From Streptomyces sp. NBC_00341 (GTDB lineage Bacteria; Actinomycetota; Actinomycetes; Streptomycetales; Streptomycetaceae), in NCBI RefSeq assembly GCF_041435055.1, contig NZ_CP108002.1:8432001-8496000 (forward strand): a stretch of DNA of 64,000 nt. The letters run 5' to 3'. Shown one piece after another: positions 2,589 to 37,285 of this stretch; the stretch's first letter is position 1, and each line of letters opens with the position of its first letter. Under the pieces are notes generated by a model that worked only from the letters and a program-made list of their open reading frames with translations, was not told where the DNA came from and searched no databases. A program made the position numbers and the translations under genes.

Positions 2589-3389
2589 TCAGCCGAGCGT
2601 GATCCGCCGGAAGCGGGCGAGGGAGAGCGCCATGAACACGGCGACGACGGCCCCGGCGCAGAGCAGTGCGTACGGCAACGCGTGCACGACGGGCCACGCC
2701 CCGCTCTCCGGCATCCCCACCGGCGGCGGGTTGCCGAACAGCCCGCGCACAGCCGTCGCCGTGGCCGAGACCGGATTCCACTCGGCGACGCTGCGCAGGG
2801 GGCCGGGCATCGTGTGCGTCGAGACGAAGGCCGACGACACGAAGGTGACGGGGAAGAGCCAGATCAGGCCCGCGCTCTGGGCGACCTCCACGCTCCGCGC
2901 CAGCAGACCGATGGCCGCCCCGACCCAGGACATGGCGAACGCGAAGAGCAGCACGAGCAGATAGGCGAGGACCGCGTCGGCCACGGACCCGGTGATGCGC
3001 CAGCCCACCAGCAGACCGCACAGCGACGTCACGGCCAGGGTCACCGCGCTCATGACCAGATCCGACAGCGTGCGGCCGAGGAGCACGGCGAGCCGGGGCA
3101 TCGGCAGGGCGCGGAAGCGGTCGACGATGCCCTTGTCCATGTCGTTGGCCAGCCCCAGGGCCGTGAACGCCGCGTTGAAGGTGACCGCCTGGGCGAAGAT
3201 CCCTCCCATCAGGAAGGTGCGGTAACCGGCGCCGCCGAGGCTGCCCCCGAACACGTATGCCAGAAGCAGTACGAACATCACCGGCTGCACCAGGGCGGCG
3301 ATCACCGAACCCGGTGTGCGGCGCAGGTTGAGCAGATTGCGCCAGGCGACGATGGTGGCGTCGCGGCCCAGCCGGCCGATCCCGGTCAT
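2589..3389 (-). CDS. ABC-2 type transporter permease (DrrB-like)
   Basis: A 266-residue polytopic protein with six predicted hydrophobic segments and the ABC-2 membrane fold typical of DrrB-type drug exporters. Its ATG overlaps the stop of the ATPase gene by four bases, the usual arrangement of DrrA/DrrB pairs, so both are made from one message. It is the last gene of the NRPS operon and most simply exports the NRPS product or protects the producer from it. Its stop abuts the stop of the convergent NicO gene with no spacer. Confidence 0.85.
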   Translation of the reverse strand: MTGIGRLGRDATIVAWRNLLNLRRTPGSVIAALVQPVMFVLLLAYVFGGSLGGAGYRTFLMGGIFAQAVTFNAAFTALGLANDMDKGIVDRFRALPMPRLAVLLGRTLSDLVMSAVTLAVTSLCGLLVGWRITGSVADAVLAYLLVLLFAFAMSWVGAAIGLLARSVEVAQSAGLIWLFPVTFVSSAFVSTHTMPGPLRSVAEWNPVSATATAVRGLFGNPPPVGMPESGAWPVVHALPYALLCAGAVVAVFMALSLARFRRITLG

Positions 3390-4399
3390 CGCGCCGCCTC
3401 CCCGCCGCCGACCGCACCGACCGGCGGCGCGTTCTGCCCGCGCGCCGGATCGGGCTGCCCGGTCAGGGCCATGAACACGTCGTCCAGGGTCGGCGGGGCG
3501 AGCACCACGTCCCGGACCCGGATCTCGGCCAGCCGCAGCCGTCCGAGCGCGTCCTCCAGGGTGAGGGCGCCGTGCTCGGTGGTGACGGTGAGCCGCCCCG
3601 TCCGCTGGTCGAGCACCGGGAGGTGCGGGCCCAGGCCCGCCAGGATCTCCGCGGCCATCGGCCCGAGGTGCGGCTCGTGCACGGTCAGCGACAGCCGCTC
3701 GCCGCCGACCCGGCCCTTCAGCTCCGTGGCGGTGCCCCGTGCGACGACCCGGCCGTGCTCGATGACGACGATGGTGTCCGCCAGCTGATCGGCTTCCTCC
3801 AGGTACTGCGTGGTGAGCAGGACCGTGGTGCCGCCCGCGACGAGTTCCTGGATCGAACGCCAGGTGTCGGCGCGGCCCCGTGGGTCAAGTCCGGTGGTCG
3901 GCTCGTCCAGGACGACGACGACCGGACGGGCGACGAGAGCGCCCGCCAGATCGAGGCGGCGGCGCATGCCACCGGAGTAGGCGCCGCTCGGCCGGTCTGC
4001 GGCCTCTTCGAGGTGGAAGCTCTCCAGCAGCTGCCCTGCTCTGCGCCGGGCGGCATGCCGGCCCATTCCGTAGAGACGGGCGACGAGATACAGATTCTCA
4101 CGCCCCGTCAGCTTCTCGTCGACCGCCGCGTACTGGCCCGAGAGGCCCAGGTTCTTCCGGACGCTCTCGGGGTCCTTGCGGACGTCGTGCCCCGCCACCC
4201 AGGCCTCTCCGCCGTCCGGCCGGAGCAGGGTGGAGAGGATCCGTACCGCCGTGGTCTTGCCCGCCCCGTTGGGCCCGAGCACACCCAGAACGGTGCCGGG
4301 CGCCGCTTCCAGGTCCACCCCGGCCAGAGCGTGTCTGTCGCCGTACCGCTTGGTGAGCCCCTCGGCACGTATCGCCGGCTGGTTCTGCCGCTCGGTCAT
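3386..4399 (-). CDS. Daunorubicin-resistance-type ABC transporter ATP-binding protein (DrrA-like)
   Basis: A 337-residue ATPase. It has Walker A GPNGAGKTT near residue 41, a signature SGGMRRRLDLAGAL, Walker [13 protein letters not shown] and a switch His in the QYLEEAD region. The C-terminal extension of about 100 residues (DALGRLRLAEIRVRDVVLAPPTLDDVFMALTG) is characteristic of DrrA-family proteins that pair with ABC-2 permeases. ATG 4399 was chosen over an upstream in-frame extension because a GAGAGGC ribosome-binding sequence precedes it and the recognisable protein begins there. It lies 38 bp after the MbtH gene, pointing to a role in export or self-protection for the peptide product. Confidence 0.88.
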   Translation of the reverse strand: MTERQNQPAIRAEGLTKRYGDRHALAGVDLEAAPGTVLGVLGPNGAGKTTAVRILSTLLRPDGGEAWVAGHDVRKDPESVRKNLGLSGQYAAVDEKLTGRENLYLVARLYGMGRHAARRRAGQLLESFHLEEAADRPSGAYSGGMRRRLDLAGALVARPVVVVLDEPTTGLDPRGRADTWRSIQELVAGGTTVLLTTQYLEEADQLADTIVVIEHGRVVARGTATELKGRVGGERLSLTVHEPHLGPMAAEILAGLGPHLPVLDQRTGRLTVTTEHGALTLEDALGRLRLAEIRVRDVVLAPPTLDDVFMALTGQPDPARGQNAPPVGAVGGGEAAR

Positions 4400-4437
4400 T
4401 GTTGCCTCTCGTCGTGCGGTCGCGGTGATCGGGCGGG

Positions 4438-4644
4438 TCAGGCCATGGCGGCGCGGGCACTCCTGGGGGTCAGATCCGTCCAGTGCACCTCGACGTAGTC
4501 CAGGCACGCGGCGTGGTCGGCGGGTCCGTACACGGCCCGCCACCCTGCGGGAATCTCGGCGAAGGAGGGCCACAGAGCGTGCTGGTCCTCGTCGTTGACC
4601 AGGACACGGTGCTGGGTCTGCGGGTCGTCGAAGGGGTTGGTCAT
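4438..4644 (-). CDS. MbtH-family NRPS accessory protein
   Basis: A 68-residue protein with the MbtH signature in full: N-x-E-x-Q-x-x-x-W-P, P-x-G-W, and the C-terminal W-T-D-x-x-P (here [21 protein letters not shown]). MbtH proteins bind the adenylation domains of NRPSs and are often needed for their solubility or activity. ATG 4644 overlaps the NRPS stop (TCA, 4641-4643) by four bases, so the chaperone is translated together with the synthetase it presumably serves. Family assignment is very secure. Confidence 0.95.
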
Positions 4645-7600
4645 CGGGTCTCTCCCTGTGTGGTGTCGTGGCCGGCGCCGAGCGCGGCGGCCAGCGTGGT
4701 CCCGATCCGCGCGCGGGCGTCGGGCTGCATCATCTGGGCGTGCGCGCACGCCACGTCGTGGTTCTCGACCGGGCCGCTGATGTACGGAGCCCAGAGGCCG
4801 AGTCCGAAGGTGTCGGCGGGACGGCCCTCGGTGGCGGTGAAGAAGAGGGCCGGGCCCTCGAAGCGCCGGGGGGTGTACTTCCGCATCAGCCGGGCCTGGC
4901 CGGCGAAGTTGTCCACCATCGCGTCGATGACGGCGGGCTCCAGCGAACCGAGCGGGCTCCCGTTGCGACGGAACGCGTCGCGGACGGCGCTCGCCTCGAC
5001 CGCGCCCTCCCGGCCCGGGCCCTCCTCGCCCACCCCCATGTTGGACAGCAGCGCCCGGAACACCGTGTCCCGGTCAGCGTTGTCGAGGTCGTCCAGCGGG
5101 GCGAGCGGGAAGGCGTCCAGAATGGCGAGCAGCGCCACCGGCTCCCCGGCCTCCTGGAGCTGGACCGCGACCTCCTGCACCACGTTGCCGCCGAAGGACC
5201 AGCCCATCAGGTGGTAGGGCCCGGCCGGCTGGACGGCGCGGAGCTCGCGCACGTAGACGGCGGCCATCTCCTCGATGCTCTCCGGGAACGGTTCGCCGCC
5301 GTCCAGATTCGGCGTCTGCAGCCCGTACACGGGCTGGCCGGGATCCAGATGGGGCAGCAGACCGGCGTAGGACCAGGCGAGTCCGCCCGCCGGGTGGACG
5401 CAGAACAGCGGGGGCCGGCTGCCCGTGGTCCGCAGCGGCAGGAGCGTCGCCAGCGGACTGTCCTGTGCGCCGTCGAGGAGCCGTTCCGCGAGCCGGGCCA
5501 CCGTCGGTGCCTCGAACAGACTGCGGATGCTGAGTTCGACGCCCAGAGCGGTCCGGATGCGTCCGGTCAGCCGGGTCGCGAGCAGCGAGTGACCGCCCAG
5601 CGCGAAGAAGTCGTCGTCGATCAGGACGCGTTCGACGCCGAGCACCTCGGCGAACAGCGTGCACAGCACGTCCTCGCGAGGGTTGCGCGGGCTGCGTCCC
5701 GCGGTGTCCGTCACGCCGAGGGGCACCGGGCGGGTCAGGGCGTTCCGGTCCAGCTTCCCGCTCGGGGTGAGCGGCAGGCGGTCCAGGGACTGCCAGCCGG
5801 ACGGGACCATGTAGCCGGGCAGGTGCCGGGCCGCGTACTCCCTGAGCGCCGCGAGGCGTTCGGGCTCCGCCGGGGCCCGCTCACCCTCCGGCGGGACGGA
5901 CAGCACCACGTGGGCGTCGAGCCGGGCCCCCGCCGCGCCGTCCTCGTGGGCGACCACGGCGGCGGCCACGACATCGGGATGCGCCGTCAGTACCGTCGCC
6001 GCCTCGTCGGGTTCGACCCGGAAGCCGCGGACCTTGATCTGTCCGTCACTGCGGCCGGTGAAGAGCAGTGAGCCGTCCGGTGCGCGCACCGCGCGGTCGC
6101 CCGTGCGGTACATCCGGCTGGACGCGGGGCCGTAGGGGTCGGGGACGAAGCTGCGGGCGGTCTCGGCCGGCCTGTCGTGGTAGCCGTGCGCCAGGCTCTG
6201 TCCCGAGAGGTACAGGTCCCCGGTCACCCCCAGCGGTACCGGGCGCAGCCTCTCGTCGAGCAGCGCGACCCGGGTGCCGGACACGGGCCCGCCGAGCACC
6301 GGGCGGACCGTGTCGGAGATCCGGGCGACCAGGGTGTCTACGGTGGCCTCCGTGGGGCCGTAGAAGTTCCAGCTCTGCACCTCCGGAATGCCGTGCAGCG
6401 TCGTCCAGAGCGCGGCCGGGACCGCCTCGCCGCCGAGGATCAGGGCTGTTGGGCGATGGCCCGTTCCGGGGGCGAGCAGTCCCGCCTCCAGAAGATGGCC
6501 GACGTGGGTCGGGGTCGACTCCAGCACGTCGAGCCCCCGGGAGCGCACGACGTCCACCAGGGCCTCGGAGTCGCGCCGGATGCCGTCGTCCAGCAGGTGG
6601 AGTTCGTGGCCGTCGATCATCCACAGCACGGGGTCGAGGGACGCGTCGAAGGACAGCGCCGCGGTCAGCGCGACCCGTAGGCGTCGTCCGCCGCGGGCCC
6701 GGACGGCGGGTGCGAAGACCTGGTGGCGGTGGTGGTCCAGCAGCCGCGCGAGCGAGCCGTGTCCCACTCGTACTCCCTTGGGGCGGCCGGTGGAACCCGA
6801 GGTGTGGATCAGGTACGCGGCGTCGCCCGGGGCCGGACGGACCGTGGGCGGGGGAGTGGCGGTGGCCGGTTCCGGTTCCGCGGCGCCGCCGAGCACCAGG
6901 GGGCGCCACGGGCCGGTCGGCCGGTGCCCGGTCGCGTCGGCGACGACGACCAGCGCGGGCCGGGCGTCGTCCAGCACCGCTTCGATCCGGCCGTCCGGGA
7001 GGCTCGCGTCGAGCGGTGCGTAGAGCGCGCCCGCCTTCAGCACACCGAGCAGCGCCGCGACGGAGTCGAGGGACCGGGGCAGCAGCACCGCGACGCACGC
7101 ACCGGGCCGGACGCCCTCGGCGCGCAGCAGGGCAGCGATGCGGTCGGAGCGGGCGTCGAGCCGTGCGAAGGTCGCCTCGCCGTCCGGGGCGACGACCGCG
7201 ACGGCCTCGCCGTGTGCGGCGACGGTTTCGGCGAACCGGCACAGGACGGTCCCGGCCTCGGTCGCGCCGTTGCCGCCGTCGCCGAGGGCGAGCAGCCGGG
7301 ACCACTCCGGCGCGGCCAGCACGGGCAGTTCGGCCAGTCGGGTGTGCGGCGCGTCGACGGCGTGCGCCGTCAGCGTGAGGAACCACTCGGTGATCCTGCG
7401 AGCGGTGGCGGTGTCGAAGAGGTCCCTGCCGAACTCCAGCGTGCCGTCCAGGTACGTGCCGTCGTCGGCGTCGCCGTCCTGTCGCTCGGTGAAGCTGAAC
7501 GACAGGTCGAACTTGGCCGCCGCCGTGTCGACCTCGTGGACCCGGGTGCGCAGTCCGGGCAGCTCCGCGTGGGGCGGCAGGGTGTTGTTGAGGGTGAGCA

Positions 7601-10600
7601 TCACCTGGAAGAGCGGATGGCGGCTGAGCGAGCGCGCCGGCCGCACCTCCTCCACCAGCCGCTCGAACGGAAGGTCCTGGTGGGCGTAGGCGGCGAGATC
7701 GGTCTCCCGCACCCGGGCCAGCAGCTCCTCGAAGTCCGGGCCGCCGCTCAGGTCGGCGCGCAGGGCCAGGGTGTTCACGAAGAACCCCACCAGCGGCTCC
7801 AGTGCCTCGTCGGTCCGGCCCGCCACGGGGGTACCGATGGTGATGTCGTCACCCGAGCCGGTCCGGTGCAGTACGGCGGCCAGCGCGGCGTGCAGCACCA
7901 TGAAGGTGCTGGAGGCCGACTTCCTGGCCAGCCGCACGATGCCCGCGGTCGTCGCCGCGGGAACACGGAAGGCGACCGAACCGCCCCGGCCGCTCGGCGC
8001 GACCGGCCTGGGGCGGTCGGCGGGCAGCGGTGTCTCCTCCGGCGCGCCCGCCATCTCCGCCTTCCAGTAGGCCAGTTGGCTGGACATCAGCGAGTCGGGG
8101 GTATCGGTCTCCCCCAGCAGGTCGCGTTGCCACAGGGCATAGTCCGGGTACTGCACCGACAGCGGTGCCCTGCCTGGCGGCCGCCCGGCGGTCCGGGCCG
8201 TGTAGGCCTCGGCCAGGTCCCGCGCCAGTGGGCCCATCGACCATCCGTCGGCCGCGATGTGATGCACGACCAGGAGAAGCGTGTGGCGCTCCTCCGACGT
8301 GCGGAACAGCTCCGCGCGCAACGGGATCTCACGGGCCAGGTCGAACGGACGCCCCGCCGCCTCGCGCAGTGCCGTCCGGACATCGGCTTCCGGCACCGCT
8401 CGGACGGGCATGGCGGGCCGTGCGCCGTCGGGGGGAAGGACGGCCTGGAACGGCTCGCCGTCGCCCACGCCGATGAGGGTCCGCAGGCTCTCGTGCCGGG
8501 CCACCAGGTCCGTCACGGCCAGGCGCAGCGCCGAACGGTCCAGTACGCCGCCCAGCTCCACGGCGAAGGCGATGTGGTACGAGGCACCCTCCGGATCCAA
8601 CTGGTTGAGGAACCACAGCCGTTGCTGGGCCGGAGACAGTGCGGGACGGGCGGGACGCACCGCCGGGCGCAGCGCGGGCCTTGCCCCGAACGCCCCGTCC
8701 AGGCGTTCGGCGAGGGCCGCCGGGGTGGTGGACTCGAAGAGCGCGCGCAGCGGGAGTTCCACCCCGAAGGCGGTCCGGACGCGGCCCACGAGGCGGGTGG
8801 CCAGCAGCGAGTGCCCGCCCAGTTCGAAGAAGTCCTCGTCCCTGCCGACGTGCTCGTGGCCGAGGCACTCGGCGAACAGCGCGCACAGGATCTCCTCCCG
8901 CGGCGAGCGCGGCGGCTCTGCCGTCGCCGCGTCCGCGTCCCGGCGGGACGGCGCGTCCCCGCCCGGCGGGAGCGCCCGGAAGTCGACCTTGCCGTGCGGT
9001 GTCAGGGGCATCGAGCCGAGGTGCGTCACAGTGGCCGGCACCATGTACGCGGGCAGCCGTTCCGCCACGAAGGAACGCAGCTCGCGCGCCGAGGGACGGC
9101 TGCCGTCCCTCGGGACGACCCAGCAGGCGAGCCGCCCGCCGCCGTCCGCCCCCGCGACCACGGCGACCGCGCACCGGTCCACGTCCGGATGGCCGCCGAG
9201 CACGCTCTCGACCTCGCCGGTCTCCACCCGGAAACCCCGGACCTTGACCTGGCCGTCGGCCCGCCCCACGAAGACCAGCAGCCCGTCCTGCCGCCGCACG
9301 AGGTCACCGGTGCGGTACATCCGGGCACCGGGAGCCCCGTACGGGTCGGGGACGAACCGGGACGCGGTGGCGGCCGGGAGGTTCTCGTAGCCGCGGGCCA
9401 GCCCTGCCCCCGACACGTAGAGCTCGCCGGTCGTGCCCGGGGCGGCCGGCCGCAGCCGTGCGTCCAGCACCCGGGCCCGGGTACCCGCGACCGAACGGCC
9501 CAGGTGCGGGCGGACGCCGGGGGAGACCCGCCCCATCACGCTGTCGACGGTGGTCTCGGTGGGTCCGTAGAGGTTCCACACGGTGACGTCGCGGAGCGCG
9601 GCGAGCTTCTCCCAGAGCTGTTCGCCCAGGGCCTCGCCGCCGAGCGCCACCACCTTCGGGCGGCGTCTGCCGGGGTCGAACAGGCCGTTCGCCGCGAGTT
9701 GTCCGAGGAAGGACGGGGTCGTCTCGATGACGTCGATCGCGCGGTCGTGGACCAGAGCGGCCAGGGCCTCGGGATCCCGTCGGGTGGTGTCGTCCACCAG
9801 GTGGAGTTCATGGCCGGCGATCATCCAGAGCAGTGGGTCCCAGGAGGCGTCGAAGGTCATGGCCGCCGTCAGCGCGACCCGTAGCGGACGGCCGTCGTTG
9901 AAGGCCTCCGCCGGTTCCATGAGCCGCTCGCGGTGGCTCGCGTACAGGTTGGCCAGGGCGCCGTGCTCCACCGTGACGCCCTTGGGCAGCCCGGTGGAGC
10001 CCGAGGTGTGCAGCACGTACGCGGCGTCCCCCGCGCGTGGCGGAGGCGGCAGCGGACCCCCGGCGGTGTCCCCGGGGTCCGGGCCGTCCAGCAGCAGCCG
10101 GGGCGTCGTCGCCGGAAGGGCGCTGTCCGTACCGGTCGTGGTGAGCAGGAGCCGGGGCGCGGCCGTGTCGAGGATGAGCCCGTTGCGGGCCGCCGGCTGG
10201 TCGGGGTCCAGCGGTACGTGGACGGCCCCGGCCCGCAGTACGGCCAGCAGCGCCACGATGTGCCCGGTGGTACGGGGCATGGCGACGGCCACCCGGTCGC
10301 CGTGGCCGGCCCCCGCCCGGCGGATGCGCCGCGCGAGATGCTCGGTGCGGGCCAGCAGTTCACCGAAGGTGAGCCGCCCGTCGGACGCGACCACGGCGGT
10401 GCGGCCGGGCTGCAGGGCGCCGCGCGCGGCGAGGACGTCCAGCACCGTCCGGTCCGGGATGCCGCTGTCCGAGGATCCCGGCAACGGGCGGGTGCCGACT
10501 AGCCGCGACGGTTCGTCGAGGGCCTGGGCGCGCTCGGCCGGGGTGAGGAAGCAGATGTCGTCGGCGGGCCCGTCCGGACCGGCCAGCAAGGCGGTGAGCA

Positions 10601-13600
10601 GCCGGGAGAAGTGCTCGGCGAACCGTTTCGCCGTGGACGGGTCGAAGAGGTCGTGGCTGAACTCCAGCTCCCCCTCGATCCCGGCGGGCGCCCCCGCGCC
10701 GTCGAAGCGCTCGGCCAGGTCCCAGGTGAGATCGAACTTGGCCCCCGTGCCGCGCACCGAGGACTCGTGGCTGACCGCGAGGCCCGGCAGCACCGGGCGG
10801 GGAACGGGGGTGTTGTTGAGGCTGAACATGACCTGGAAGAGCGGATGCCGGGAGGTGGAGCGCTCCGGGGCCAGCGCCTCCACGACACGCTCGAAGGGCA
10901 GATCCTGATGCGCGTAGGCCGCGAGGTCGGTGCGCTTCACCCGCGCCACGAGCTCCCGGAAGCTCGGCGCTCCGGAGGTGTCGGCCCGGAGCACCAGGGT
11001 GTTGACGAAGAACCCGATCAGTTCGGAGAGGTTCTCGTCGGTGCGGCCCGCCACCGGGGTCCCGATCGCGATGTCGTCGCCCGCACCCAGCCTGCTCATC
11101 AGGGCCGCGAGCGCGGCGTGCAGCACCATGAACCCGCTGGCCCCGCTGTCGGCGGCCAGATCCAGGAGCGCCCGGTGCGCGGCCGGGCCGACGACGACGG
11201 GGACGCGCCCGCCACGGCCGGATGACCTGGCCGGACGTGCCCGGTCCGCGGGGAATCCGGACTGCTCGGCCAGGCCCTCCAACGCCGCGGTCCAGTGGGC
11301 GAGCTGGCGTCCCGCCACGCTGTCCGGCTGCCCGGGGTCCCCGAGCAGGGACCGCTGCCACAGCGCGTAGTCGGCGTACTGCACCGGCAGCGGCTCCCAC
11401 CGGGGCGCACCCCCGAAGGCGCGGGCGCTGTACGCAGCGGAGAGGTCCCGCAGCAGCGGGCCGACCGACCAGCCGTCCGCGGCGATGTGGTGGAGCACCA
11501 GCAGCAGCACGTGCTCATCGGGCCCGGCCGGGAACAGCTCCGCGCGCAGCGGCAGTTCGCGGTCCAGCGCGAACGGGGCGGGGTCCGGCCGTACGTCCTG
11601 CGCGTCGCAGGCCTCCCGCACCAGCAGGAGAGAACCGGCCTCGCCCGGTTCACGTACGCGCTGCCGGACCCCCTCGGAGTCCTCCGAGAAGACCGTGCGA
11701 AGGCTCTCGTGCCGCGCGACGACGTCATCGAGCGCCGCGCGGAGGGCGTCCCGGTCCAACGCGCCGGACAGCCGCAGCGCCAGCGGCATGTGATAGGCCG
11801 CACCGGCGCCGCCCATCGCCTCCGTCACCCACAGCCGCTGCTGCCCGAACGAGGCGGGCAGCCGCCGCGGGCGGGGAAGCACCGGGCCCACCGCGGGGCG
11901 TGCGGGCGGCGCGGTGTCCAGCAGCGCGACGAGCCCGGCCGGTGTGGGCGCCTCGAACAGGGCCCGGATCGGCAGCTCGACGCCGAACTCGGCCCGGATC
12001 AGGCCCACCAGACGGGTGGCCAGCAGCGAGTGTCCGCCGAGCAGGAAGAAGCCGTCGTCCCGGCCCACCTCGGCCAGGCCGAGGCACTCGGCGAACGCGG
12101 CGCACATCCGCTCCTCCTCGGCCGTGCGCGGCGCGCCGCCCCGGACGGCCACCGGGTGGGCCCGGGGCAGCCGGCCGGCGTCCAGCTTGCCGTTCGGGGT
12201 GAGCGGCAGCCGTTCCACCGTCGCGTAGGCGGACGGCACCATGTGGCCCGGAAGGACCCGGGCCAGGGCGTCCCGTACGGCTTCGAGACCGAGGGCGGCA
12301 CTCGCGTCGGCGGGCACCAGATAGGCGGCGAGGCGCTCCTCGCCTCCCGGCACCGCGACCGGCGTCACCGCTGCCTCGCTCACCCCGGGCAGCTGCCGCA
12401 GGGCCGCCTCGATCTCGCCGGTCTCCACGCGGTGACCGCGGATCTTGATCTGGCCGTCACTGCGGCCGAGGAACTCCAGCATTCCGTCGTCGCCCCACCG
12501 CGCGAGGTCCCCGGTGCGGTACATCCGGGCGCCGGACGGCCCGAACGGGTCCGGCATGAAGCGTTCCGCGGTGAGTCCGGGCCGGCCGGAGTAGCCGCGG
12601 GCCACGCCCTCGCCGGAGAGGTACAGCTCACCGCTGCCGCCGCGCGGTACCGGGTGGAGCGAGGGGTCGAGCACATAGGCACGGGCGCCGGTGACCGGCC
12701 GTCCGATGACCGGGTTCCGGCCGGCTATCCGGGTCGTGACCGCGTCGACCGTGGCCTCTGTCGGCCCGTAGAAGTTGAAGACGAGGAGGTCGTCCCGCTC
12801 GGAGAGCTCCCTCCACAGGGCCTCGTCGACGGGTTCGCCGCCGAGAGCGATGACGCGGGGCCGGTGGGCGGGGGCGGTGAGCAGGCCGGCGGTGAGCATC
12901 TGCCGCAGATAGGTGGGCGTCGTCTCGATGGCGTCGATCCGTTCCCGCACGAGGTGGTTCACCAGCGCCTGGGGGTCGCGCCGGACGTCGTCGTCGATGA
13001 TGTGCAGCTCGTGTCCCGCCGCCATCCACAGGACGGGGTCCCAGGACGCGTCGAAGGAGGTGGCCGCCGTCAGGGCGACCCGCAGACCTCGGCCGTAGGT
13101 CGCTTCCGCCAGGGAGTGGGACTCCTGCCGGTGGTGTTCGAGGAGATTGCTGAGCGAGCGGTGTTCGACGACGACGCCCTTGGGCCTTCCGGTGGAGCCC
13201 GAGGTGTAGATGACGTACGCGGCGTCCCTCGGCCCGGGGCCGACCGGGGTGCTCACATCGGGTTCCTGCCGGACGAGTTCCGGATCCACCAGCGGCAGCG
13301 CCCGTGCGGGATCGATGAGGTGCGCGGACCCGGAGCTCGCGACCAGCGCGGCCGGGGCCGAGTCCTCGATCATGAAGGCGAGCCGCTCCGCCGGATAAGA
13401 GGGGTCGAGCGGCAGGTACGCGGCTCCCGCGCGCATCACCGCCAGCATCGCCACGACGAGTTCGGTGGAACGGGGCAGGCCGACGGCGATCTTCGCGCCC
13501 GGCCGGGCCCCGGCGGCGGCCAGCACCGCGGCGAGGGCATCGACCCGGCCGTTCAGCTCCGCGAACGTCAGCCGGGTGTTCCCGGAGACGACCGCGGTCG

Positions 13601-15071
13601 CGTGCGGGGTGGCCAGGGCCTGCCGGTCGAGTTGCTCGGGCAGGGTGACCGGCACGCCGCCGGTGCTGTCGGGGGAGGCGCGGTGCGGTGCGGCGAGGCC
13701 CGGGACCAGCCGGCGTTCGGCCTCGCTGAGGAAGTTCAGCGACCCGATCGTGCGGGAGGGGTCGTCGGTGAACTGCTCGATCAGCCGGCACAGCCGGCGG
13801 TGGTGCCCGGCCAGCTCCTCGGGTGTGTAGCGGGCGGAGTTGCCGTGCAGGTCGATGTGGAGCCCGCCGTCCGCGTACGAGGCGTGCACGGCGACGGCGA
13901 GATCGTCCACCGGGCCGATGGACAGGTTGTGCAGGGTGGCCCGGTGCGGACCGAAGCTGAGACCGTCGTCGAACGCCAGGATGTTGACCGTGGGGCCGCT
14001 CAACGGCACATCCGTACCGGCGAGTCCGAGGTCCTGCCGGAGCTCCTCCGTCGCGTACCGCTGATGCCGCAGTACCTTGCGGGCCTCCGCAGAGGCCCGC
14101 TTCGCCACGTCGGACACCCGGTCCGACGGGGCGAGCGCCAGGCGCATCGGCAGGATGGAGCTGAGCATGCCCGGTGTGGCACGGGCCAGGGGGGTGCGCC
14201 GGGCGGTGACCGGCAGGCCCAGGACGGCCTCGCCGACTCCGCGGCTCCGGTGCGTGTAGACGGCCAGCGCGGTCATGAAGAACGTCGGCCAGCCCACCCC
14301 CGACTCCCTGGCCGCTGCCCGCAGCCGGTCCGCCCGGTCGGGCGACACCTCCGCGCGCATCCGCAGCGACCCGGAGCCGGACGCCGGCCCGTTGGCGTCC
14401 GGCCTGGCGGGAACGGGGGAGTCCGTCAGGTAGCGCGTCCAGAACTCGCGGTCAGCGGAGTGCTGCCCGGACGCCAGGTAGGCGTCTTCCTCGTCGATGA
14501 GCGGCGCGAGCGCGCCGCCGGCCGGCCGCGGCGGATCCCCCTCGGACGGCATGAGCGCGGCGGTGTACGCCTCGGCGATCCGGGCGAGGGCCAGGGCGGC
14601 GCCGTAGCCGTCGAGCGCGAGGTGGTGCACCTGCTGGTGGAAGAGATGCCGCGTGTCCGTGAGGCGGTAGAGGGTCAGACGCACCAGCGGGCCGGTGGCG
14701 ATGTCCGCGGGCTGCCGCAGCGCCGTCTCCATCCGCCGCAACGCCTCACCGTGGGGGTCCTGGTAGCCGGAGAGGTCGACCAGCGGGACATCGAGCGGAG
14801 GCCGGTCCGTGGCGCCGTTGCGGTGGACCCGCTGGAAGGGAGCGCCGTCACGCTCCACGAAGGTCACCCGTAGCGCTTCGGTGCCGTCCGCCACACGGCC
14901 GACCGCGGTCCGCAGGACGGCTGGGTCCAGCGGCCCCCGGACATCGGCGTACTCGGCCACGTTGTACGCCGCGCTGTCCGCGCCGATGCGCTGCGCGAAC
15001 CAGATGCCACGCTGGGCCGAGGTCAGCGGAAGGTCATCATGCGAAGTCGTGTTCTGCGGTGCGTGGGTCAC
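4641..15071 (-). CDS. Trimodular NRPS, C-A-T-C-A-T-C-A-T-TE
   Basis: A 3476-residue nonribosomal peptide synthetase. Approximate domains: C1 15-440 (HHLALDG near 149), A1 460-960, T1 985-1050 (LGGHSL), C2 1075-1510 (HHIAADG near 1197), A2 1530-2030, T2 2060-2125, C3 2145-2590 (HHIAADG near 2274), A3 2610-3100, T3 3130-3195, TE 3215-3460 (GWSFGG, late His in NHDVACAH). No epimerase or methyltransferase domain is seen. The A-domain pocket residues, read by alignment to GrsA from memory, are DADEILFVDK, DADEVLLVDK and DADELLFVDK, so all three modules probably load the same or very similar monomers. Glu278 with Asp331 recalls ornithine/diaminobutyrate codes. C1 and the TE look like those of EntF, suggesting an acyl or aryl starter loaded in trans. 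GTG 15071 is preceded by AGAGGTGAG. The product is unknown. Confidence 0.93.
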
Positions 15072-15518
15072 GCGTTCTCACCTCTGTGGAAGGCCTGCGG
15101 TGCGGGGACGGCTCGCGGCGGAGCGCCGGGGCAGGGCGGAATGAAGGCGGGGCGGTCCCGTGCGGCGGCCGGTCCCCCGGCGATCGGCCGCCTCGAAACC
15201 GCGCCCTCGACCTGGGCTGACGCGCGTTCACGCATCGCTGCTGTGAACCACACCTCTGACGCACCAGCACGGCCCGACACACCTCCGGAAATGCCACCGT
15301 CGCCCCAATTGGGCTGTCACATCAGTCGTTCGAAGTCACAAAGGTGTTGGATTGGTGATGTGACGCGCGACACAGCGTGAGAGGGCAGGGGTTTGCGCTT
15401 CACGAGTGCGTATCAGTCGAACGAGTAATCAATTCGAGCCATCGGGCAAGCCGGGAGCCCGGCGGCCTCGAATGGTCCATGTCGAATGTCGAGTACTCAT
15501 GAGATCTCTGGAGCGTTC
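15072..15518. other. Intergenic region upstream of the NRPS and the small secreted peptide
   Basis: A 447-bp region between divergent genes with no convincing ORF. It is clearly richer in A/T than the coding DNA around it (15300-15480) and must hold both promoters. It contains a 10-bp palindrome CCCAATTGGG (15304-15313) and a separated inverted repeat (15316-15364). No 19-bp iron box of the IdeR/DmdR type was seen by eye. Confidence 0.6.
15316..15364. promoter_or_regulatory. Inverted repeat, possible operator of the NRPS or peptide gene
   Basis: GTCACATCA at 15316-15324 is matched perfectly by TGATGTGAC at 15356-15364, with 31 bases between the arms. A further GTCACA copy lies at 15335-15340. 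The spacing is long for a single dimer site but suits two sites or a looped operator. A CCCAATTGGG palindrome sits immediately before it. Function is inferred only from symmetry and position. Confidence 0.4.
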
Positions 15519-15824
15519 ATGAATATCCCCTCAGCAGTCCCGCGTTGGTGTGCGGCCCTGGCAGCCGCGGGAGTACTGGTGATCACCTCTGCGGCAGGAG
15601 CGGGAGCCGCGGGCGCGGCCGGGCGGACGGCGCCGGCCGACGGCTCCATACGGGCGGCGCAGCCCGCCTGGGCCACGTCCGCCTACCGCGGTGTACAGGG
15701 CGGCAACCTCTGCCTGCTGTCGCGTTGTTCGGTCGGCGGCTCCGCCGAGGACGGGAACGCGGGACCGAGCAATACGCAGGGCTTCAACCTGTGCCTGCTG
15801 GCCCTGTGCACCGTGCGTCCCTGA
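15519..15824 (+). CDS. Small secreted peptide with duplicated NLCLLxxC(S/T)V motif
   Basis: A 101-residue protein with an N-terminal signal sequence (residues ~10-35, Ala-rich, Ala-x-Ala cleavage likely near 25-35). The mature part of about 65 residues carries two copies of one motif: NLCLLSRCSV (63-72) and NLCLLALCTV (90-99), 27 residues apart and each preceded by Gly. Each copy has two cysteines spaced CX4C, so disulfides within or between copies are possible. ATG 15519 was chosen because GGAG lies five bases upstream; an in-frame ATG at 15486 lacks this. The family is not recognised. It could be a surface-active or morphogenetic peptide, or a ribosomal-peptide precursor, but there is no direct evidence. 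It diverges from the NRPS and converges on an ABC exporter. Confidence 0.75.
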   Translation: MNIPSAVPRWCAALAAAGVLVITSAAGAGAAGAAGRTAPADGSIRAAQPAWATSAYRGVQGGNLCLLSRCSVGGSAEDGNAGPSNTQGFNLCLLALCTVRP

Positions 15825-15924: not shown

Positions 15925-17727
15925 TCACGGCCGGGCCGGCTGGAGCCCCGCGTACACCCCGCCGCTGTCCAGCAGTTCGCTGTGCGAGCCGATCTCCGCG
16001 ATCCGGCCGCCCTCCATCGCCACGATGCGGTCCGCGTTCCGGATCGTCGAGAGGCGGTGGGCGACGACGAAGACGGTCCGGCCGTGCACCAGACGGGAGA
16101 GCGCCTCCTGGACGAGGGCCTCCGAGCGGTTGTCGAGTGCGGAGGTCGCCTCGTCGAGCACCAGCACCCGGGGGTCGCGGATCAGCGCCCTGGCGATCGC
16201 GAGCCGCTGCCGCTGCCCGCCCGAGAGCCGTGCGCCCCGCTGGCCGACGACCGTGTCCAGGCCGAGCGGCAGCTCCCGTACGAACTCCAGGGCGTTGGCG
16301 TCCGCCAGGGCGCGCGTCAGCGTGGCCTCGTCCGTGTCGCCCATCCCGTACGTCACGTTGTCGCGGATGCTGCCCTCGAACAGGATCGACTCCTGCGGCA
16401 CCACCGAGAGGAAGCGCCGGTAGCTGCGCAGGTCGAGCCCTGCCATGTCGGCGCCGTCGAGCAGGATGCGGCCGGAGGTGGGCCGGATGAAGCCGATGAG
16501 CAGGTTGAGGACGGTCGACTTGCCCGCGCCCGAGGCGCCCACCAGCGCGATGGTCTCGCCCGGCCGCGCGGAGAGGGTGAATCCGTCGACCGCCGGGTCC
16601 GCTTCGTCGTAGGCGAATCCGACGTCCTCGAAGTCGATATGGCCGGTGACCCGCTCCACCTGCACCTTCCCCGCGTTCTGCTCCAGGTCCGGGGCCTGGA
16701 GCACCTCGCCGGCCGAACGCACCGACTCCAGGCCCTTGGTGAGCACGGGGGCCAGGCCGAGCAGCGTGGTCACGGAGCCGGTCAGCACGGTGAAGAAGGA
16801 GCTGAGCATCACCACGTCGCCCGCGGTGACCGCCATCCACCCGTGATACGCGACCAGGGCGGAGCCCGTCAGGCACAGCACCCCGAGCGTGTTGAGGATG
16901 ACCCAGGCCAGCGAGCCGAACCGGCCGTTGACCGTGTCCAGGCGAAGCCCGGCCGCGAACACCTGGCGGAGCGAACCGTCGACCCGGCCCAGCGCGGTCC
17001 GCTCCAGGCCGTGGGCGCGGGTGATGGGGATGAGCGTGGTCATCTCGCCCACCCGGGAGGAGAGCTGCTCGACCTCGCGGCGGAAGGACTCGTTGTGGCT
17101 GCGCAGCCGCGCGCGCAGCTTCATCACCAGGAACCCGGCGGCCGGCACCACGACGAGGAAGACGGGCAGGAACGCCGGGACGCGCAATCCGATGACGACA
17201 AGGCCGCCGGCCAGGGTCACCACGGCGCCGAGACCCATGTCCGCGCTCTGCTGCATCATCTGTTCCACGGACTCCACGTCGCGGACCACCTTCGCCTGCA
17301 GGACGCTCGAACTGACCCGGGCGTGGTAGCCGATGGACAGCTGCTGCATCCGGCGGCACAGCGCGGAGCGCAGGGTGATGCCCATCCGGCGGATGCTTCC
17401 GCCGAGGAGCCGTACGTACCACTGGTGGAGCGGGTAGTTGATGACGAGGATGAACAGCAGGATGCCGGTGGACTCCCAGAGTCCGGACTCGGGGCCGTGC
17501 TGGACGACTATGTCGAGGACGGTCGCGGTGATCAGCGGAAGCAGCCAGATCGGGCTGTGCTTCACGACGAAGACGAGCACCGCGATTGCCAGCCGGCCTC
17601 GGTCGGGGTGGAGCAGATGACCGAGGGTGCGTACCGGGTTCTCACCGCGGTAGCGGTGGTCCAGGTGGTCGAAGGGGGCCAGGGATTCGGCGGAGACGGG
17701 CGCAAGCGCTTTCGGCATGGAGTCCAT
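15925..17727 (-). CDS. ABC exporter, fused membrane and ATPase domains
   Basis: A 600-residue half-transporter. The N-terminal ~330 residues form the six-helix exporter membrane domain (hydrophobic segments near residues 50-75, 85-105, 160-205, 270-310). The C-terminal ATPase domain has Walker A GASGAGKST, signature LSGGQRQRLAIARAL, Walker B VLVLDEATSALD and the H-loop VAHRLS. There is no C39 peptidase domain. ATG 17727 was taken as the start; ATG 17718 is also possible because GGTGGG lies at a better distance from it. The gene converges on the small secreted peptide across a shared terminator. Substrate is unknown: a drug, lipid, or a product of the adjacent cluster. Confidence 0.85.
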   Translation of the reverse strand: MDSMPKALAPVSAESLAPFDHLDHRYRGENPVRTLGHLLHPDRGRLAIAVLVFVVKHSPIWLLPLITATVLDIVVQHGPESGLWESTGILLFILVINYPLHQWYVRLLGGSIRRMGITLRSALCRRMQQLSIGYHARVSSSVLQAKVVRDVESVEQMMQQSADMGLGAVVTLAGGLVVIGLRVPAFLPVFLVVVPAAGFLVMKLRARLRSHNESFRREVEQLSSRVGEMTTLIPITRAHGLERTALGRVDGSLRQVFAAGLRLDTVNGRFGSLAWVILNTLGVLCLTGSALVAYHGWMAVTAGDVVMLSSFFTVLTGSVTTLLGLAPVLTKGLESVRSAGEVLQAPDLEQNAGKVQVERVTGHIDFEDVGFAYDEADPAVDGFTLSARPGETIALVGASGAGKSTVLNLLIGFIRPTSGRILLDGADMAGLDLRSYRRFLSVVPQESILFEGSIRDNVTYGMGDTDEATLTRALADANALEFVRELPLGLDTVVGQRGARLSGGQRQRLAIARALIRDPRVLVLDEATSALDNRSEALVQEALSRLVHGRTVFVVAHRLSTIRNADRIVAMEGGRIAEIGSHSELLDSGGVYAGLQPARP

Positions 17728-29236: not shown

Positions 29237-31621
29237 ATGGCCACCAGGAAGGACGCGGCGTCGTCCGCGCCGCACGCTGCCGACATCCACGATGTGATCC
29301 GCGTGCACGGCGCGCGCGTGAACAACCTCAAGGACGTCAGTATCGAGATCCCGAAGCGGCGGCTCACGGTCTTCACCGGGGTCTCCGGCTCGGGCAAGAC
29401 CTCGCTGGTGTTCAACACGATCGCCGCGGAGTCGCAGCGGCTGATCAACGAGACGTACAGCGCCTTCGTCCAGGGCTTCATGCCGACGCAGGCACGGCCC
29501 GAGGTCGACGTCCTGGACGGGCTGACCACCGCGATCATCGTCGACCAGCAGAAACTGGGCGCCGATCCGCGGTCCACGGTCGGCACGGCCACCGACGCCA
29601 ACGCGATGCTGCGGATCCTCTTCAGCCGCCTCGGGAAGCCGCACATCGGCCCGCCCGGCGCGTACGCCTTCAACGTCCCCTCGGTCACCGCGAGCGGCGC
29701 CATCACCGTCGAGCGCGGCGCGAAGAAGGCGGTCAAGGCGACCTTCAACCGCACCGGCGGCATGTGTACGCGCTGCGAGGGCCGGGGCGCCGTCTCCGAC
29801 ATCGACCTCACCCAGCTCTACGACGACTCCAAATCGCTCTCCGAGGGCGCCTTCACCATTCCCGGCTGGAAGTCCGACAGCTTCTGGACCGTCCGGGTCT
29901 ACGCCGAATCGGGCCTGCTCGACCCCCACAAACCGATCCGCGAGTTCACCAGGAAGGAGATGCGGGACTTCCTCTACCGGGAGCCGGTCAAGGTGAAGGT
30001 CGAGGGGGTGAACCTCACCTACGAGGGCCTGATCCCCAAGATCCAGAAGTCGTTCCTGTCCAAGGACAAGGAAGCGCTGCAGCCGCACATCCGCGCGTTC
30101 GTGGAGCGCGCGGTCACCTTCACCACCTGCCCCGAGTGCGACGGCACCCGGCTCAGCGAGGGCGCCCGGTCCTCGAAGATCAAGCGGATCAACATCGCCG
30201 ACGCCTGCGCGATGCAGACCAGCGACCTGGCCGCCTGGGTCCGTGACCTCGACGAGCCCTCCGTCGCACCGCTGCTCACCGCCTTGCGGCAGACCCTCGA
30301 CTCGTTCGTGGAGATCGGGCTCGGCTACCTCGCGCTCGACCGGCCGACAGGCACCCTGTCCGGCGGCGAGGCACAGCGCGTCAAGATGATCCGCCACCTC
30401 GGCTCCTCCCTCACCGACGTCACCTATGTCTTCGACGAGCCCACCGCCGGCCTGCACCCCCACGACATCCAGCGGATGAACAGGCTGCTGCTGCGCCTGC
30501 GCGACAAGGGCAACACGGTGCTCGTCGTGGAGCACAAGCCGGAGACGATCGCGATCGCGGACCATGTCGTCGACCTCGGCCCCGGCGCGGGTACGGCGGG
30601 CGGAACCGTCTGCTTCGAGGGCACCGTCGAGGGACTGCGGGCCGGAGACACCGTCACGGGCCGCCACTTCGACGACCGGGCCACTCTCAAGGACACCCGG
30701 CGCAAGCCCACCGGGGCGCTGGAGGTTCGGGGCGCGGACGCGAACAACCTGCGGGACGTCGACGTCGACATCCCGCTCGGGGTCCTCGCCTTGATCACCG
30801 GCGTCGCCGGCTCCGGCAAGAGCTCACTGATCCACGGCTCGGTCTCGGGACTGGACGGGGTGGTGTCGATCGACCAGGGCGCGATCCGCGGCTCGCGACG
30901 GAGTAACCCCGCGACGTACACCGGGCTGCTCGACCCGATCCGCAAGGCGTTCGCCAAGGCCAACGATGTGAAGCCGGCCCTGTTCAGCGCCAACTCCGAG
31001 GGCGCCTGCCCCGGCTGCAACGGCGTCGGGGTCGTCTACACGGACCTCGCGATGATGGCGGGCGTCGCCACCGTCTGCGAGGAGTGCGAGGGGAAGCGGT
31101 TCCTGGCCTCGGTGCTCGAATACCGCCTCGGCGGACGTGACATCAGCGAGGTGCTGGCCATGTCGGTGACCGAGGCCGAGGAGTTCTTCGGCAGCGGCGA
31201 GGCGCACACGCCGGCCGCGCACCGCGTCCTCGACAGACTGGCCGACGTCGGGCTCGGCTACCTCAGCCTGGGCCAGCCGCTCACCACCCTGTCCGGCGGT
31301 GAGCGGCAACGGCTCAAGCTGGCTACGCACATGGGCGAGAAGGGCGGAATCTACGTCCTCGACGAACCGACCACCGGCCTTCACCTCGCAGACGTCGAGC
31401 AGCTGCTCGGCCTGCTCGACCGGCTGGTGGACTCCGGGAAGTCCGTCATCGTGATCGAACACCACCAGGCGGTCATGGCGCACGCCGACTGGATCATCGA
31501 CCTGGGCCCCGGCGCCGGTCACGACGGCGGCAGGCTCGTCTTCGAGGGCACCCCCGACGACCTGGTCGCGGACCGCTCCACCCTCACGGGCGAGCACCTC
31601 GCGGCCTACGTGGGAGCCTGA
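29237..31621 (+). CDS. UvrA-like ABC ATPase, DrrC/UvrA2-type drug-resistance protein
   Basis: A 794-residue UvrA-family protein, shorter than the ~950-1000 residues of housekeeping UvrA. It has two ABC domains with Walker [10 protein letters not shown] (48-56) and GVAGSGKSS (about 521-529), signatures [12 protein letters not shown] and [12 protein letters not shown], and zinc-type cysteine clusters [20 protein letters not shown] and CEECEG. The reduced length is typical of DrrC-like proteins that protect producers from DNA-binding drugs such as daunorubicin. ATG 29237 has GGAG 11 bases upstream. Its last 16 bases overlap the end of the convergent transferase gene. A general repair role remains possible. 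Confidence 0.88.
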
Positions 31622-32460
31622 GGCAGCGAGTCGACGGCGGCCGCCCCGCCCGCGACGTCCGGAGCCGTCGGAGCCCCTGGTGTCTCCGGCATCTGCGGTG
31701 TATTCGGGAAGGCGGGGTGGCCGCAGAGGCGGCGTACGTACTCCCGGAGCCGGGCGCGGTCGCCGAGGGCGTCGACCGGGCCGAGATGGACGAGCGCCAC
31801 CCACAGGTCCACATCCCCGGCCGTCAGCTGCTCGCCCAGCGCGTAGGGGCGCCGGGCGAGGGACCGGTCCAGGAGGTCCAGGGCCGCAGAGCGCTCCGAG
31901 GACCCCGCGTGCGGGGTGACGTCCCGGTCCAGCAGCTCGCGCAGGGCCTCGATGCCGTCGGCGAGCTCCGGCGGGCGCAGCGCCGAGGGACAGGCCTCGT
32001 CATGGCCGGAGAGCAGGCCTGCCAGATCGCGGAGTATGTCGGGCGTGTGGTTGCTGACGATGCGTCCGCTCCAGCGGTCGCACAGCGCGGGCGCGGTCAG
32101 CGGCCCGTCGTAGTGGTGCAGCGTGGCCTCGTACGCGCCGCGCAGCGAGGCGTACGCCTCGGGTGTCCCGGCGGGGTGCCCCAGGAACGTGGTGGCGACC
32201 GAGTCCCGGAGACCGAGCAGGCCGAGGGTGATCGAGATACGCAGCGAGCGCGGACAGCCCGCCGACAGGAACAGCTCGTAGCGGTGCGGAGCGGGATAGA
32301 AGCCGCCGGCCAGACCGACGCCGATACGGCTGTGGATACGGGAGGAGGGTACGGCGATCTTGGGACGGGGATGCGTGGCGCACGGACTCGGGCCGGATGA
32401 GATCGAGCCGCACGTGAGGGAGTTGCCTGTGCTGGAACTGCGCGAAGCTGTCTCGGGCAT
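31606..32460 (-). CDS. Glutathione-S-transferase-like enzyme (glutathionyl-hydroquinone reductase-like)
   Basis: A 284-residue protein. The segment HRYELFLSAGCPRSLRISITLGLLGL (residues ~60-85) aligns with the thioredoxin-fold active site of ECM4/YqjG-type glutathionyl-hydroquinone reductases, where the Cys is catalytic. The C-terminal helical domain contains the usual LLDRSLARRPYALGEQLTAGDVDLWV. ATG 32460 has AGGAG a few bases before it. Streptomyces lack glutathione, so a mycothiol- or ergothioneine-linked role is more likely than a glutathione one (inference). A leader peptide (32683-32748) precedes it, suggesting sulfur-linked regulation. Confidence 0.75.
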   Translation of the reverse strand: MPETASRSSSTGNSLTCGSISSGPSPCATHPRPKIAVPSSRIHSRIGVGLAGGFYPAPHRYELFLSAGCPRSLRISITLGLLGLRDSVATTFLGHPAGTPEAYASLRGAYEATLHHYDGPLTAPALCDRWSGRIVSNHTPDILRDLAGLLSGHDEACPSALRPPELADGIEALRELLDRDVTPHAGSSERSAALDLLDRSLARRPYALGEQLTAGDVDLWVALVHLGPVDALGDRARLREYVRRLCGHPAFPNTPQMPETPGAPTAPDVAGGAAAVDSLPQAPT

Positions 32461-32560
32461 GACACTCCTGTGGAGATCCCGGTGGGAACGAGGTAGCCGC
32501 CGCCTTGTGGGCACCAGCGGCCGGATGGGGAACGGCTGCGCTCGCGCACCGGTCCGAATC

Positions 32561-32675
32561 ACGACAGCGCGGGCGTGCACGCGTCATCGAGACCGTGCGG
32601 ACCTGTACGCGTCATCGTGACAGCGCGGACCTGTGCGCGTCGTCGCGAACCGTGCGGACCTGTACGCGTCCGGTG
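32561..32675. repeat. Tandem 28-bp repeat, about 3.7 copies
   Basis: Units at 32581-32608, 32609-32636 and 32637-32665 share GCGTC-TCG-GA-C-GCGGACCTGT-C, with partial copies before (from 32561) and after. The units are contiguous, without spacers. They lie in the probable 5' untranslated region between a leader peptide and the transferase gene on the minus strand, so they would be transcribed. Confidence 0.8.
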
Positions 32676-32748: not shown

Positions 32749-33183
32749 GTCCCACCCGTCCCGACTCCGGGGCCCGCGAGACGCGGGACCACGCTTGCCC
32801 CGCCGCACCGGCGGGACCCGGTCGTCACCCGGGGCACCCCGTCGCGGTGGAAGGGTTGCCTGCCAGCGGGCCGGGGCCGATGGACCCCGTGAGCAGGACG
32901 GATCCCGCACGGGGGCGCTGACAATCGTGACCGTCCACGTCAGTTTCGGTGCGCCGGGTGACGCCGTCAAGGAGGCCACAGGGGCCATCTCGCCTGTTGG
33001 TCACCCGCGTTGACATTCCTGTCGGCCCATGCATAACTTGCGGCGCGGAACGGCTCCGGGTAGCGGCGATACGCCCGGCTTGTCGGCCGGCGCCCCAGCA
33101 CACCGAGGGGTGCCGCAGTTGAGGACCGGACGGTGTCCGGCAGACGCGAGGCCCCGCGGGGCGGATCGGTGACGGTGAGAGCG
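32749..33183. other. Divergent promoter region of the organosulfur operon and the transferase gene
   Basis: A 435-bp region between two divergent leader peptides with no convincing gene. A good plus-strand promoter lies at 33010-33039. No minus-strand promoter stands out, and no clear inverted repeat of operator size was seen. Confidence 0.5.
33010..33039 (+). promoter_or_regulatory. Predicted vegetative-type promoter of the organosulfur operon
   Basis: TTGACA (33010-33015) is a perfect -35 hexamer, followed after 18 bases by TAACTT (33034-33039) as a -10 element. Transcription would start near 33047 and pass through the leader peptide (33184) into the ABC transporter genes. Confidence 0.65.
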
Positions 33184-35339: not shown

Positions 35340-35411
35340 CCTCGCCGACCGTTCCACCCGCCGACGCCCCGTCTCCGTACACCCTCACCGCACCCGACAA
35401 GGACAGCCACC

Positions 35412-37241: not shown

Positions 37242-37285
37242 GGCAGCCGCGTCCCGCGCTCCGCCGCCCCGCCGCGAGCCCCGTC

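What the first reader, a model, noticed from the sequence alone, without database searches (positions are those of the whole stretch)
4641..15071. NRPS with three near-identical adenylation pockets
By aligning each A domain to GrsA from memory, the ten specificity residues read DADEILFVDK, DADEVLLVDK and DADELLFVDK. Only positions 299 and 322 differ, and conservatively. Glu278 with Asp331 appears in ornithine and diaminobutyrate codes (such as DVGEIGSIDK), but Asp239, Leu301 and Phe/Leu322 do not match any code I know well. The enzyme may build a homo-tripeptide of a basic or otherwise unusual amino acid.
Basis: partly seen in the sequence, partly recalled or inferred. Interest (0 to 1): 0.75.

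Follow-up and report, generated by a model that had tools for sequence, protein, structure and literature searches.

The report
Conserved homotripeptide synthetase with secreted mini-protein
A Streptomyces enzyme that probably joins three copies of one basic amino acid under a fatty-acid-type cap is inherited together with an exporter and a previously unnamed secreted mini-protein, which suggests that the product and the mini-protein work together outside the cell.

Summary
The NRPS is real: one intact 3,476-aa protein, C-A-T-C-A-T-C-A-T-TE. Corrected codes are DADEAGFVDK, DADEAGLVDK and DADEIGFVDK; "Leu301" is position 300, and 301 is Gly. The pattern is not chance: 64 orthologs keep DADE in all three modules, although A1, A2 and A3 share only about 50% identity. 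So a homotripeptide is well supported. A basic residue (Arg, Orn or Lys) is likely but unproven. C1 looks like an acyl-starter domain, so I expect an N-acyl tripeptide.

The larger find lies outside the reported coordinates. The NRPS is followed by mbtH and a two-gene ABC exporter. Divergent to it lies a secreted ~100-aa protein with two QGxNxCLLxxC repeats and no Pfam family. Intact copies sit beside the NRPS in 23 of 23 genomes examined. At three loci that lack the NRPS, the mini-protein gene is broken (two) or undetected (one). A Crp-like operator lies between the two genes in 21 of 23 loci.

Searches of the held library found neither these codes nor these peptide motifs. Product, substrate and partner function remain undetermined.

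The parts
4641..15071 (-). Three-module NRPS, 3476 aa, C1-A1-T1-C2-A2-T2-C3-A3-T3-TE
   Evidence: Pfam: 3 Condensation, 3 AMP-binding, 3 PP-binding, 1 Thioesterase; translation
13722..15038 (-). C1, starter-type condensation domain with intact HHxxxDG (VHHLALDG)
   Evidence: Solved-structure search at 1e-30: seven sequences, 7c1k family 239 bits, CDA peptide synthetase I 206, ObiF1 180, EntF 178. That the 7c1k family is the RzmA starter domain, and that all seven are starter or aryl-starter domains, is recalled
12162..13637 (-). A1, code DADEAGFVDK
10512..11879 (-). C2, elongation-type condensation domain
   Evidence: Best structure match 5u89, 432 bits
8970..10451 (-). A2, code DADEAGLVDK
7287..8669 (-). 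C3, elongation-type condensation domain
   Evidence: Best structure match 5u89, 401 bits
5727..7244 (-). A3, code DADEIGFVDK
4704..5414 (-). TE domain with GWSFGG nucleophile motif
   Evidence: Pfam Thioesterase residues 3220-3456; motif read in translation
4438..4644 (-). mbtH-like gene, 68 aa, overlapping the NRPS stop by 4 bases
   Evidence: PF03621 93.5 bits, over cut-off; present after the NRPS in 15 of 15 loci examined
3386..4399 (-). ABC exporter ATPase (DrrA type), 337 aa from the shared start
   Evidence: Pfam ABC_tran and DrrA1-3_C on the longer ORF 3386-4573; ortholog lengths; start read
2589..3389 (-). ABC-2 exporter permease (DrrB type)
   Evidence: Pfam ABC2_membrane; orthologs 75-88% identical in the other 11 cluster-bearing genomes
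15519..15824 (+). Divergent secreted mini-protein, 101 aa: signal-like N terminus and two QGxNxCLLxxC repeats
   Evidence: Conserved beside the NRPS; no Pfam family at E up to 10; signal peptide judged by eye
15359..15374 (.). Crp-like operator TGTGACGCGCGACACA between the two divergent genes
   Evidence: GTG-N8-CAC in 17 of 19 loci and in 4 of 4 further loci; consensus from PMC10033298 passages

Best explanation
This is a five-gene cassette. C1 loads an acyl group, probably from acyl-CoA, onto the first residue. A1, A2 and A3, helped by the MbtH protein, each activate the same amino acid, most likely a basic one (my order: Arg, then Orn, then Lys). C2 and C3 join them, and the TE releases an N-acyl homotripeptide. 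The DrrAB-type transporter exports it. The divergent gene makes a Sec-exported mini-protein with two Cys-x4-Cys loops. Both sides appear to be switched together by a Crp-family regulator, and the mini-protein acts with, carries or protects against the exported product. Shown by sequence: domain order, pocket conservation, gene linkage, joint loss or decay at three loci, and the conserved operator-like site. Inferred: the acyl group, the amino acid, the transport cargo, Crp control, disulfide loops and the partnership.
For: Domains and TE. Pocket codes in 64 orthologs. The three A domains form one clade, support 0.99. C1 ranks with starter domains while C2 and C3 do not. A DHB-AMP ligase is absent at 1e-120 in 7 of 15 cluster-bearing genomes, so an aryl cap is not a general need. 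Apart from the NRPS, mbtH, exporter and mini-protein genes, no flanking gene recurs in more than 4 of 19 loci; no precursor-making gene is shared, which fits a common amino acid. Intact mini-protein beside the NRPS in 23 of 23 genomes. Three remnant loci: G150 and G352 (mini-protein gene broken, NRPS not found beside it) and G090 (truncated drrB only). Crp-like site in 21 of 23 loci.
Against: No product, substrate or expression data. The code is unlike any I found in the held library, so Arg/Orn/Lys rests on pocket chemistry; bulky Phe/Leu322 differs from the published Arg pattern (Ala322). Domains of other synthetases alternate Glu278 with Asn278 (DADELGLVDK/DADNLGLVDK), so Glu278 may not mean a charged partner. 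C1 also resembles EntF. The mini-protein's model is poor (mean pLDDT 51) and gives no function. The Crp-like site is missing in 2 of 23 loci. The cluster is not common: 12 of 295 genomes sampled from this genus carry it.
Confidence: 0.5

Rival explanations
1. The three modules add a neutral polar residue such as Gln, not a basic one; the product is an acyl-tri-Gln-like peptide.
For: The same A-domain subfamily has DAQEGGLVDK members, close to the published Glu/Gln code DAQDLGVVDK; an acid at 278 and Asp331 are shared.
Against: Position 239 is Asp in all 192 ortholog domains read, which would face an amide less well than the Gln239 of the published code (inference).
Confidence: 0.2
2. A catecholate siderophore synthetase: C1 takes 2,3-dihydroxybenzoate from a carrier protein as EntF does.
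For: MxcG and EntF models match strongly (best stretches C1-A1), though below their cut-offs; this genome has a DHB-AMP ligase above cut-off at G000:C1:760920, and 8 of 15 cluster-bearing genomes have one at 1e-120, 6 of them over the cut-off.
Against: 7 of 15 cluster-bearing genomes lack such a ligase at 1e-120; C1 scores higher with fatty-acyl starter domains than with EntF; in this genome the ligase lies about 7.7 Mb away on the contig; no flanking gene recurs in more than 4 of 19 loci.
Confidence: 0.12
3. The TE works iteratively, joining several tripeptide units or cyclising them, so the product is larger than a tripeptide or a ring.
For: A TE follows identical modules, which recalls enterobactin-type trimerising enzymes (recalled).
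Against: Three modules already give the repeat; a basic side chain is a poorer nucleophile for such closure than the serine hydroxyl of enterobactin (recalled chemistry). Not tested.
Confidence: 0.12
4. The mini-protein is a passenger that stays beside the NRPS by chance or for a shared promoter only.
For: Every relative with a printed organism name is from Streptomyces, so linkage may partly reflect shared descent. A lipoprotein-like gene is also shared by 4 of 19 loci, so some neighbours do travel along.
Against: Four cysteines and QG..CLL..C in both repeats are invariant over 19 sequences at 33-63% identity to the window copy; other flanking genes differ among most loci; the gene is broken or undetected at the three loci lacking the NRPS.
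Confidence: 0.1

Closest known systems
Starter-C lipopeptide synthetases (RzmA, CDA peptide synthetase I)
   Same: N-terminal C domain ranks closest to these in solved structures (RzmA identity recalled)
   Different: Only three modules with one repeated pocket; acyl donor unknown
EntF / MxcG catecholate siderophore synthetases
   Same: Begins with C-A-T; strong model scores
   Different: Scores below the curated cut-offs; pocket differs; DHB activation not a general partner
Ornithine- and arginine-activating A domains (DVGEIGSIDK; Arg pattern with Glu239/Asp278)
   Same: Acids at 278 and 331, or at 239 and 278
   Different: Asp239 with Glu278 and Phe/Leu322; code not found in the held library
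Epsilon-poly-lysine synthase (Pls)
   Same: One kind of residue joined repeatedly (recalled; its structure 7wew appears)
   Different: Here three separate classical modules and a TE, not an iterative single module (recalled for Pls)
Chaplins and SapB surface peptides of Streptomyces (recalled)
   Same: Small secreted peptides of this genus
   Different: No Pfam match for the mini-protein; different motif; tied to an NRPS

Membership tests
Modular NRPS | Complete C-A-T modules with catalytic motifs and a TE | tested here: met
Lipopeptide NRPS (starter C) | N-terminal C domain of the starter clade | tested here: met
   By ranking in a structure-sequence search against C2 and C3; no tree with reference C domains was made
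Lipopeptide NRPS (starter C) | Fatty acyl group in the product | not testable with these tools
   Needs mass spectrometry
Catecholate siderophore synthetase | DHB-AMP ligase available in cluster-bearing genomes | tested here: not met
   Absent at 1e-120 in 7 of 15; over the curated cut-off in 6 of 15
Catecholate siderophore synthetase | EntF or MxcG curated score reached | tested here: not met
   1295 against 2400 bits and 1449 against 2300 bits
Homotripeptide synthetase | Same specificity pocket in all modules, kept across orthologs | tested here: met
Basic-amino-acid A domain | Match to a published Arg, Orn or Lys code | tested here: inconclusive
   Positions shared, counted by hand: Arg pattern 6 (A1, A2) to 7 (A3) of 10; DVGEIGSIDK 5 to 6; Gln/Glu code DAQDLGVVDK 6 (codes)
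Streptomyces Crp target | GTG(N)6GNCAC operator in the promoter region | tested here: met
   17 of 19 loci on either strand; consensus; binding itself not tested
Chaplin or other named small secreted family | Pfam domain match | tested here: not met
   6 mini-proteins, no match except YSIRK signal at E 0.74 in one

The most novel reading that the evidence does not exclude
The exported N-acyl tri-basic peptide and the disulfide-loop mini-protein form an obligate two-part extracellular system: a nonribosomal product that works only together with a dedicated ribosomal partner, both under one Crp-like switch.
Probability: 0.22. Interest if true: 0.8.

Novelty: new variant of a known kind. Interest (0 to 1): 0.52.

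Why it matters
Orthologs of this NRPS occur in many named Streptomyces, with large protein clusters labelled S. griseus and S. albidoflavus, and I found no product for it in the held library. It offers an A-domain code that can be decoded in one assay, and an unnamed secreted protein family whose genes are broken or undetected where the NRPS is missing. If the two act together, it would show how a nonribosomal product can depend on a gene-encoded partner, one easily overlooked because it is a short unannotated ORF.

Tried and rejected
Pairwise alignment to GrsA alone puts Trp/Trp/Leu at 239 (codes DAWEAGFVD, DAWEAGLVD, DALEIGFVD). Rejected after calibration on same-length domains; one search found no paper with those codes either.

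A DHB cap was considered and lowered. Fold prediction of the mini-protein gave mean pLDDT 51, pTM 0.22, so no fold search was run. Paper searches for the tripeptide, lipotripeptide, codes and peptide motifs gave nothing on this system, judged from listings (the hits in 30 and 69 are unrelated by title). One search found two papers for published reference codes and none for DMENLGLIN, so that code rests on recall.

Dropped rows: five weak hits (G101, G119, G213, G270, G302; E 1e-4 to 9e-4) were not followed; G119 is without a match at E 0.001. In one search, 65 proteins of 3300-3650 aa were taken from the 120 listed of 2004 plus the query; one (P0074) gave two domains and was left out of the tally. 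The protein search scored only the 7989 candidates sharing most words. The contig-length match of NRPS and mini-protein lists (18 shared lengths of 64 and 107, copied by hand) was kept only as a loose check. A search with C1 at E 1e-110 was too strict: it found 8 of the 12 cluster-bearing genomes. L038's NRPS match is in two pieces about 1.6 kb apart, cause not determined; it is counted as linked. My first exporter ORF call (3386-4573) hid the mbtH gene until. In one search the second search, of L067, printed nothing (probably no such file) and is not used.
Full report
What is there. The ORF 4641-15071 (minus) encodes one intact NRPS, C-A-T-C-A-T-C-A-T-TE. The window is G000:C1:8432001-8496000 of a 9.06 Mb genome. 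The protein search listed full-length relatives at up to 98% identity; those with a printed organism name at 58% or more are Streptomyces, two of them under the label [Kitasatospora] papulosa.

The pockets. Aligned to GrsA (checked identical to 1amu), 301 is the first Gly of GGE. Position 239 is harder because these domains lack one residue after FDAS relative to GrsA. MAFFT put the gap before Trp; HMMER put it there against one LgrA domain and later, giving Asp239, against the other. I used a domain of the same length in this genome, L017 (L008 is its like in another genome): it reads DMENLGLIN, the hydroxyornithine code as I recall it, only if the residue after Trp is 239. L011 then reads DGED, as in the published Lys and Orn codes DGEDHGTVVK and DGEDHGTVTK. 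In that register the codes are DADEAGFVDK, DADEAGLVDK and DADEIGFVDK.

Beyond chance. Of 65 proteins of ortholog length, 64 gave three domains; every one of the 192 starts DADE. A2 is DADEAGLVDK in 63 of 64, A1 DADEAG[FY][VI][DN]K in all 64, A3 DADE[IVALC]G[FLY][VI]DK in all 64. The locus DNA agrees wherever domains were readable. A1, A2 and A3 are about 50% identical pairwise, and two domains elsewhere in this genome as similar to A1 have other codes. In a tree of 15 orthologs with other A domains each of A1, A2 and A3 is its own clade and together they form one clade, support 0.99. I infer that the modules duplicated long ago and the pocket was kept.

Which amino acid. Not decided. A 2025 survey (PMC12283262, section 11 and passages read) reports Arg-activating domains as mostly Asp235, Ala/Val236, Glu239, Asp278, Ile/Val/Leu299, Gly301, Ala322, Val/Ile330, Thr/Asp331; PMC3992020 (passages) gives DVGEIGSIDK for ornithine; the Gln/Glu code DAQDLGVVDK is also near. 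By hand count the Arg pattern shares 6 to 7 of 10 positions, the Orn code 5 to 6, the Gln/Glu code 6. Three carboxylates (239, 278, 331) favour a cation; no precursor-making gene is shared at the locus, which favours a common amino acid. Phe/Leu322 and the E/N swap at 278 in other synthetases speak for caution.

Starter. C1 (470 residues) matches seven solved-structure sequences at 1e-30: the 7c1k family 239 bits, CDA synthetase 206, ObiF1 180, EntF 178; that these are fatty-acyl or aryl starter domains is recalled. C2 and C3 match other, elongation-type entries. A DHB-AMP ligase is lacking at 1e-120 in 7 of 15 cluster-bearing genomes and over the curated cut-off in 6 of 15. I therefore prefer a fatty-acyl-type cap.

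The cassette. Across loci the conserved unit is the NRPS, an mbtH gene (found late; 15 of 15 loci), a DrrA-type ATPase and a DrrB-type permease, and a divergent gene for a secreted mini-protein. Of the other flanking genes in 19 loci none is found in more than 4: a lipoprotein-like gene and one other each occur in this genome and three more loci. In one search drrA was present in 12 of 12 loci with room for it and drrB in 11 of 12; the twelfth runs off its contig, and that genome has a drrB on another contig. One search adds three loci with both.

The mini-protein. 101 aa in the window, signal-like N terminus, then two repeats. Over 19 aligned sequences QG, CLL and C of both repeats are invariant, including four cysteines; the Asn of the first repeat is not. 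The order of the QGG and QGF repeats is swapped in some lineages. No Pfam family in six tested. A profile search gave 107 relatives; those with a printed organism name are Streptomyces, as hypothetical, secreted or uncharacterised proteins. The AlphaFold model is poor, with short strands at the two NLCL segments.

Linkage. A scan with three mini-proteins found nine loci in GTDB species genomes, all nine beside the NRPS; one of these (L039) is the same contig as G021 by length. In 295 genus genomes 13 had a hit below 1e-7: in 12 it lies beside the NRPS; G150 has a broken copy, a 23-residue drrA-like match and no NRPS match in the 8.8 kb fetched. A wider profile on 147 order genomes gave four new hits: three beside the NRPS, the fourth (G352) with an in-frame TGA, a drrB fragment and no NRPS match in the 17.9 kb fetched. 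Intact: 23 of 23 distinct assemblies linked. From the other side, 13 of 295 genomes have a DrrB of 75% identity or more: 12 are the same cluster-bearing genomes; G090 has only a truncated DrrB, no NRPS match in the 17 kb fetched and no mini-protein match.

Switch. Between the two divergent genes lies GTG-N8-CAC in 17 of 19 loci. After thinning near-duplicates by hand it is 13 of 14, against 2.7 expected from 200 dinucleotide shuffles (maximum 9). Four loci not used before (L038, L077, L078, L079) all have it, 21 of 23 in all. The Streptomyces Crp consensus GTG(N)6GNCAC and the GlxR site GTG(N)8CAC are as quoted in PMC10033298 (passages). Two loci (L061, L063, close relatives) lack it. Crp binding is inferred.

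Standing in print. PMC3992020 (passages) lists several NRPS clusters of S. albus J1074 as unknown or lipopeptide; whether one is this cluster was not determined. I found no paper with these codes, the peptide motif, or a triarginine, trilysine or triornithine NRPS product in the held library.

Verdict. An intact homotripeptide synthetase of undetermined, probably basic, specificity within a conserved cassette that includes a new secreted partner family.

Noticed in passing
window 32786-32932 (-): A SAM-IV riboswitch (66.9 bits) lies ahead of a minus-strand ORF 31606-32580 whose only Pfam match is a glutathione S-transferase C-terminal domain, an odd partner for this riboswitch.
   Followed up: no
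window 33355-42343 (+): An ABC importer (permease, ATPase, binding protein), an acetyltransferase and four luciferase-like monooxygenase genes in a row, perhaps for organosulfur use.
   Followed up: no
window 42355-45209: Two beta-lactamase-family genes flank a LysR regulator.
   Followed up: no
window 15925-17727 (-): A 600-aa ABC exporter beside the mini-protein; among the loci only the close relative L032 shows a weak drrA-type match at that place.
   Followed up: partly
G000:C1 8428000-8428650 (L029:16000-16650), left of the window: A lipoprotein-like gene that also lies near the cluster in G005, L035 and L036, with a look-alike ORF next to the G150 remnant.
   Followed up: partly
L027/L028 (G005): The NRPS ortholog is split into two overlapping ORFs of about 2178 and 1319 aa; a true split or a frameshift.
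   Followed up: no
G000:C1:746123-762494 (L030 holds 738001-758000): A second NRPS region in this genome with a DSDDVGIVD A domain and a nearby DHB-AMP ligase above cut-off, likely a catecholate siderophore cluster.
   Followed up: partly
P0064, P0077, P0078, P0080 and like: Other synthetases of about 4.5 kaa, named ones from Streptomyces and Kitasatospora, carry DADELGLVDK or DADNLGLVDK domains, possible relatives for decoding the substrate.
   Followed up: no
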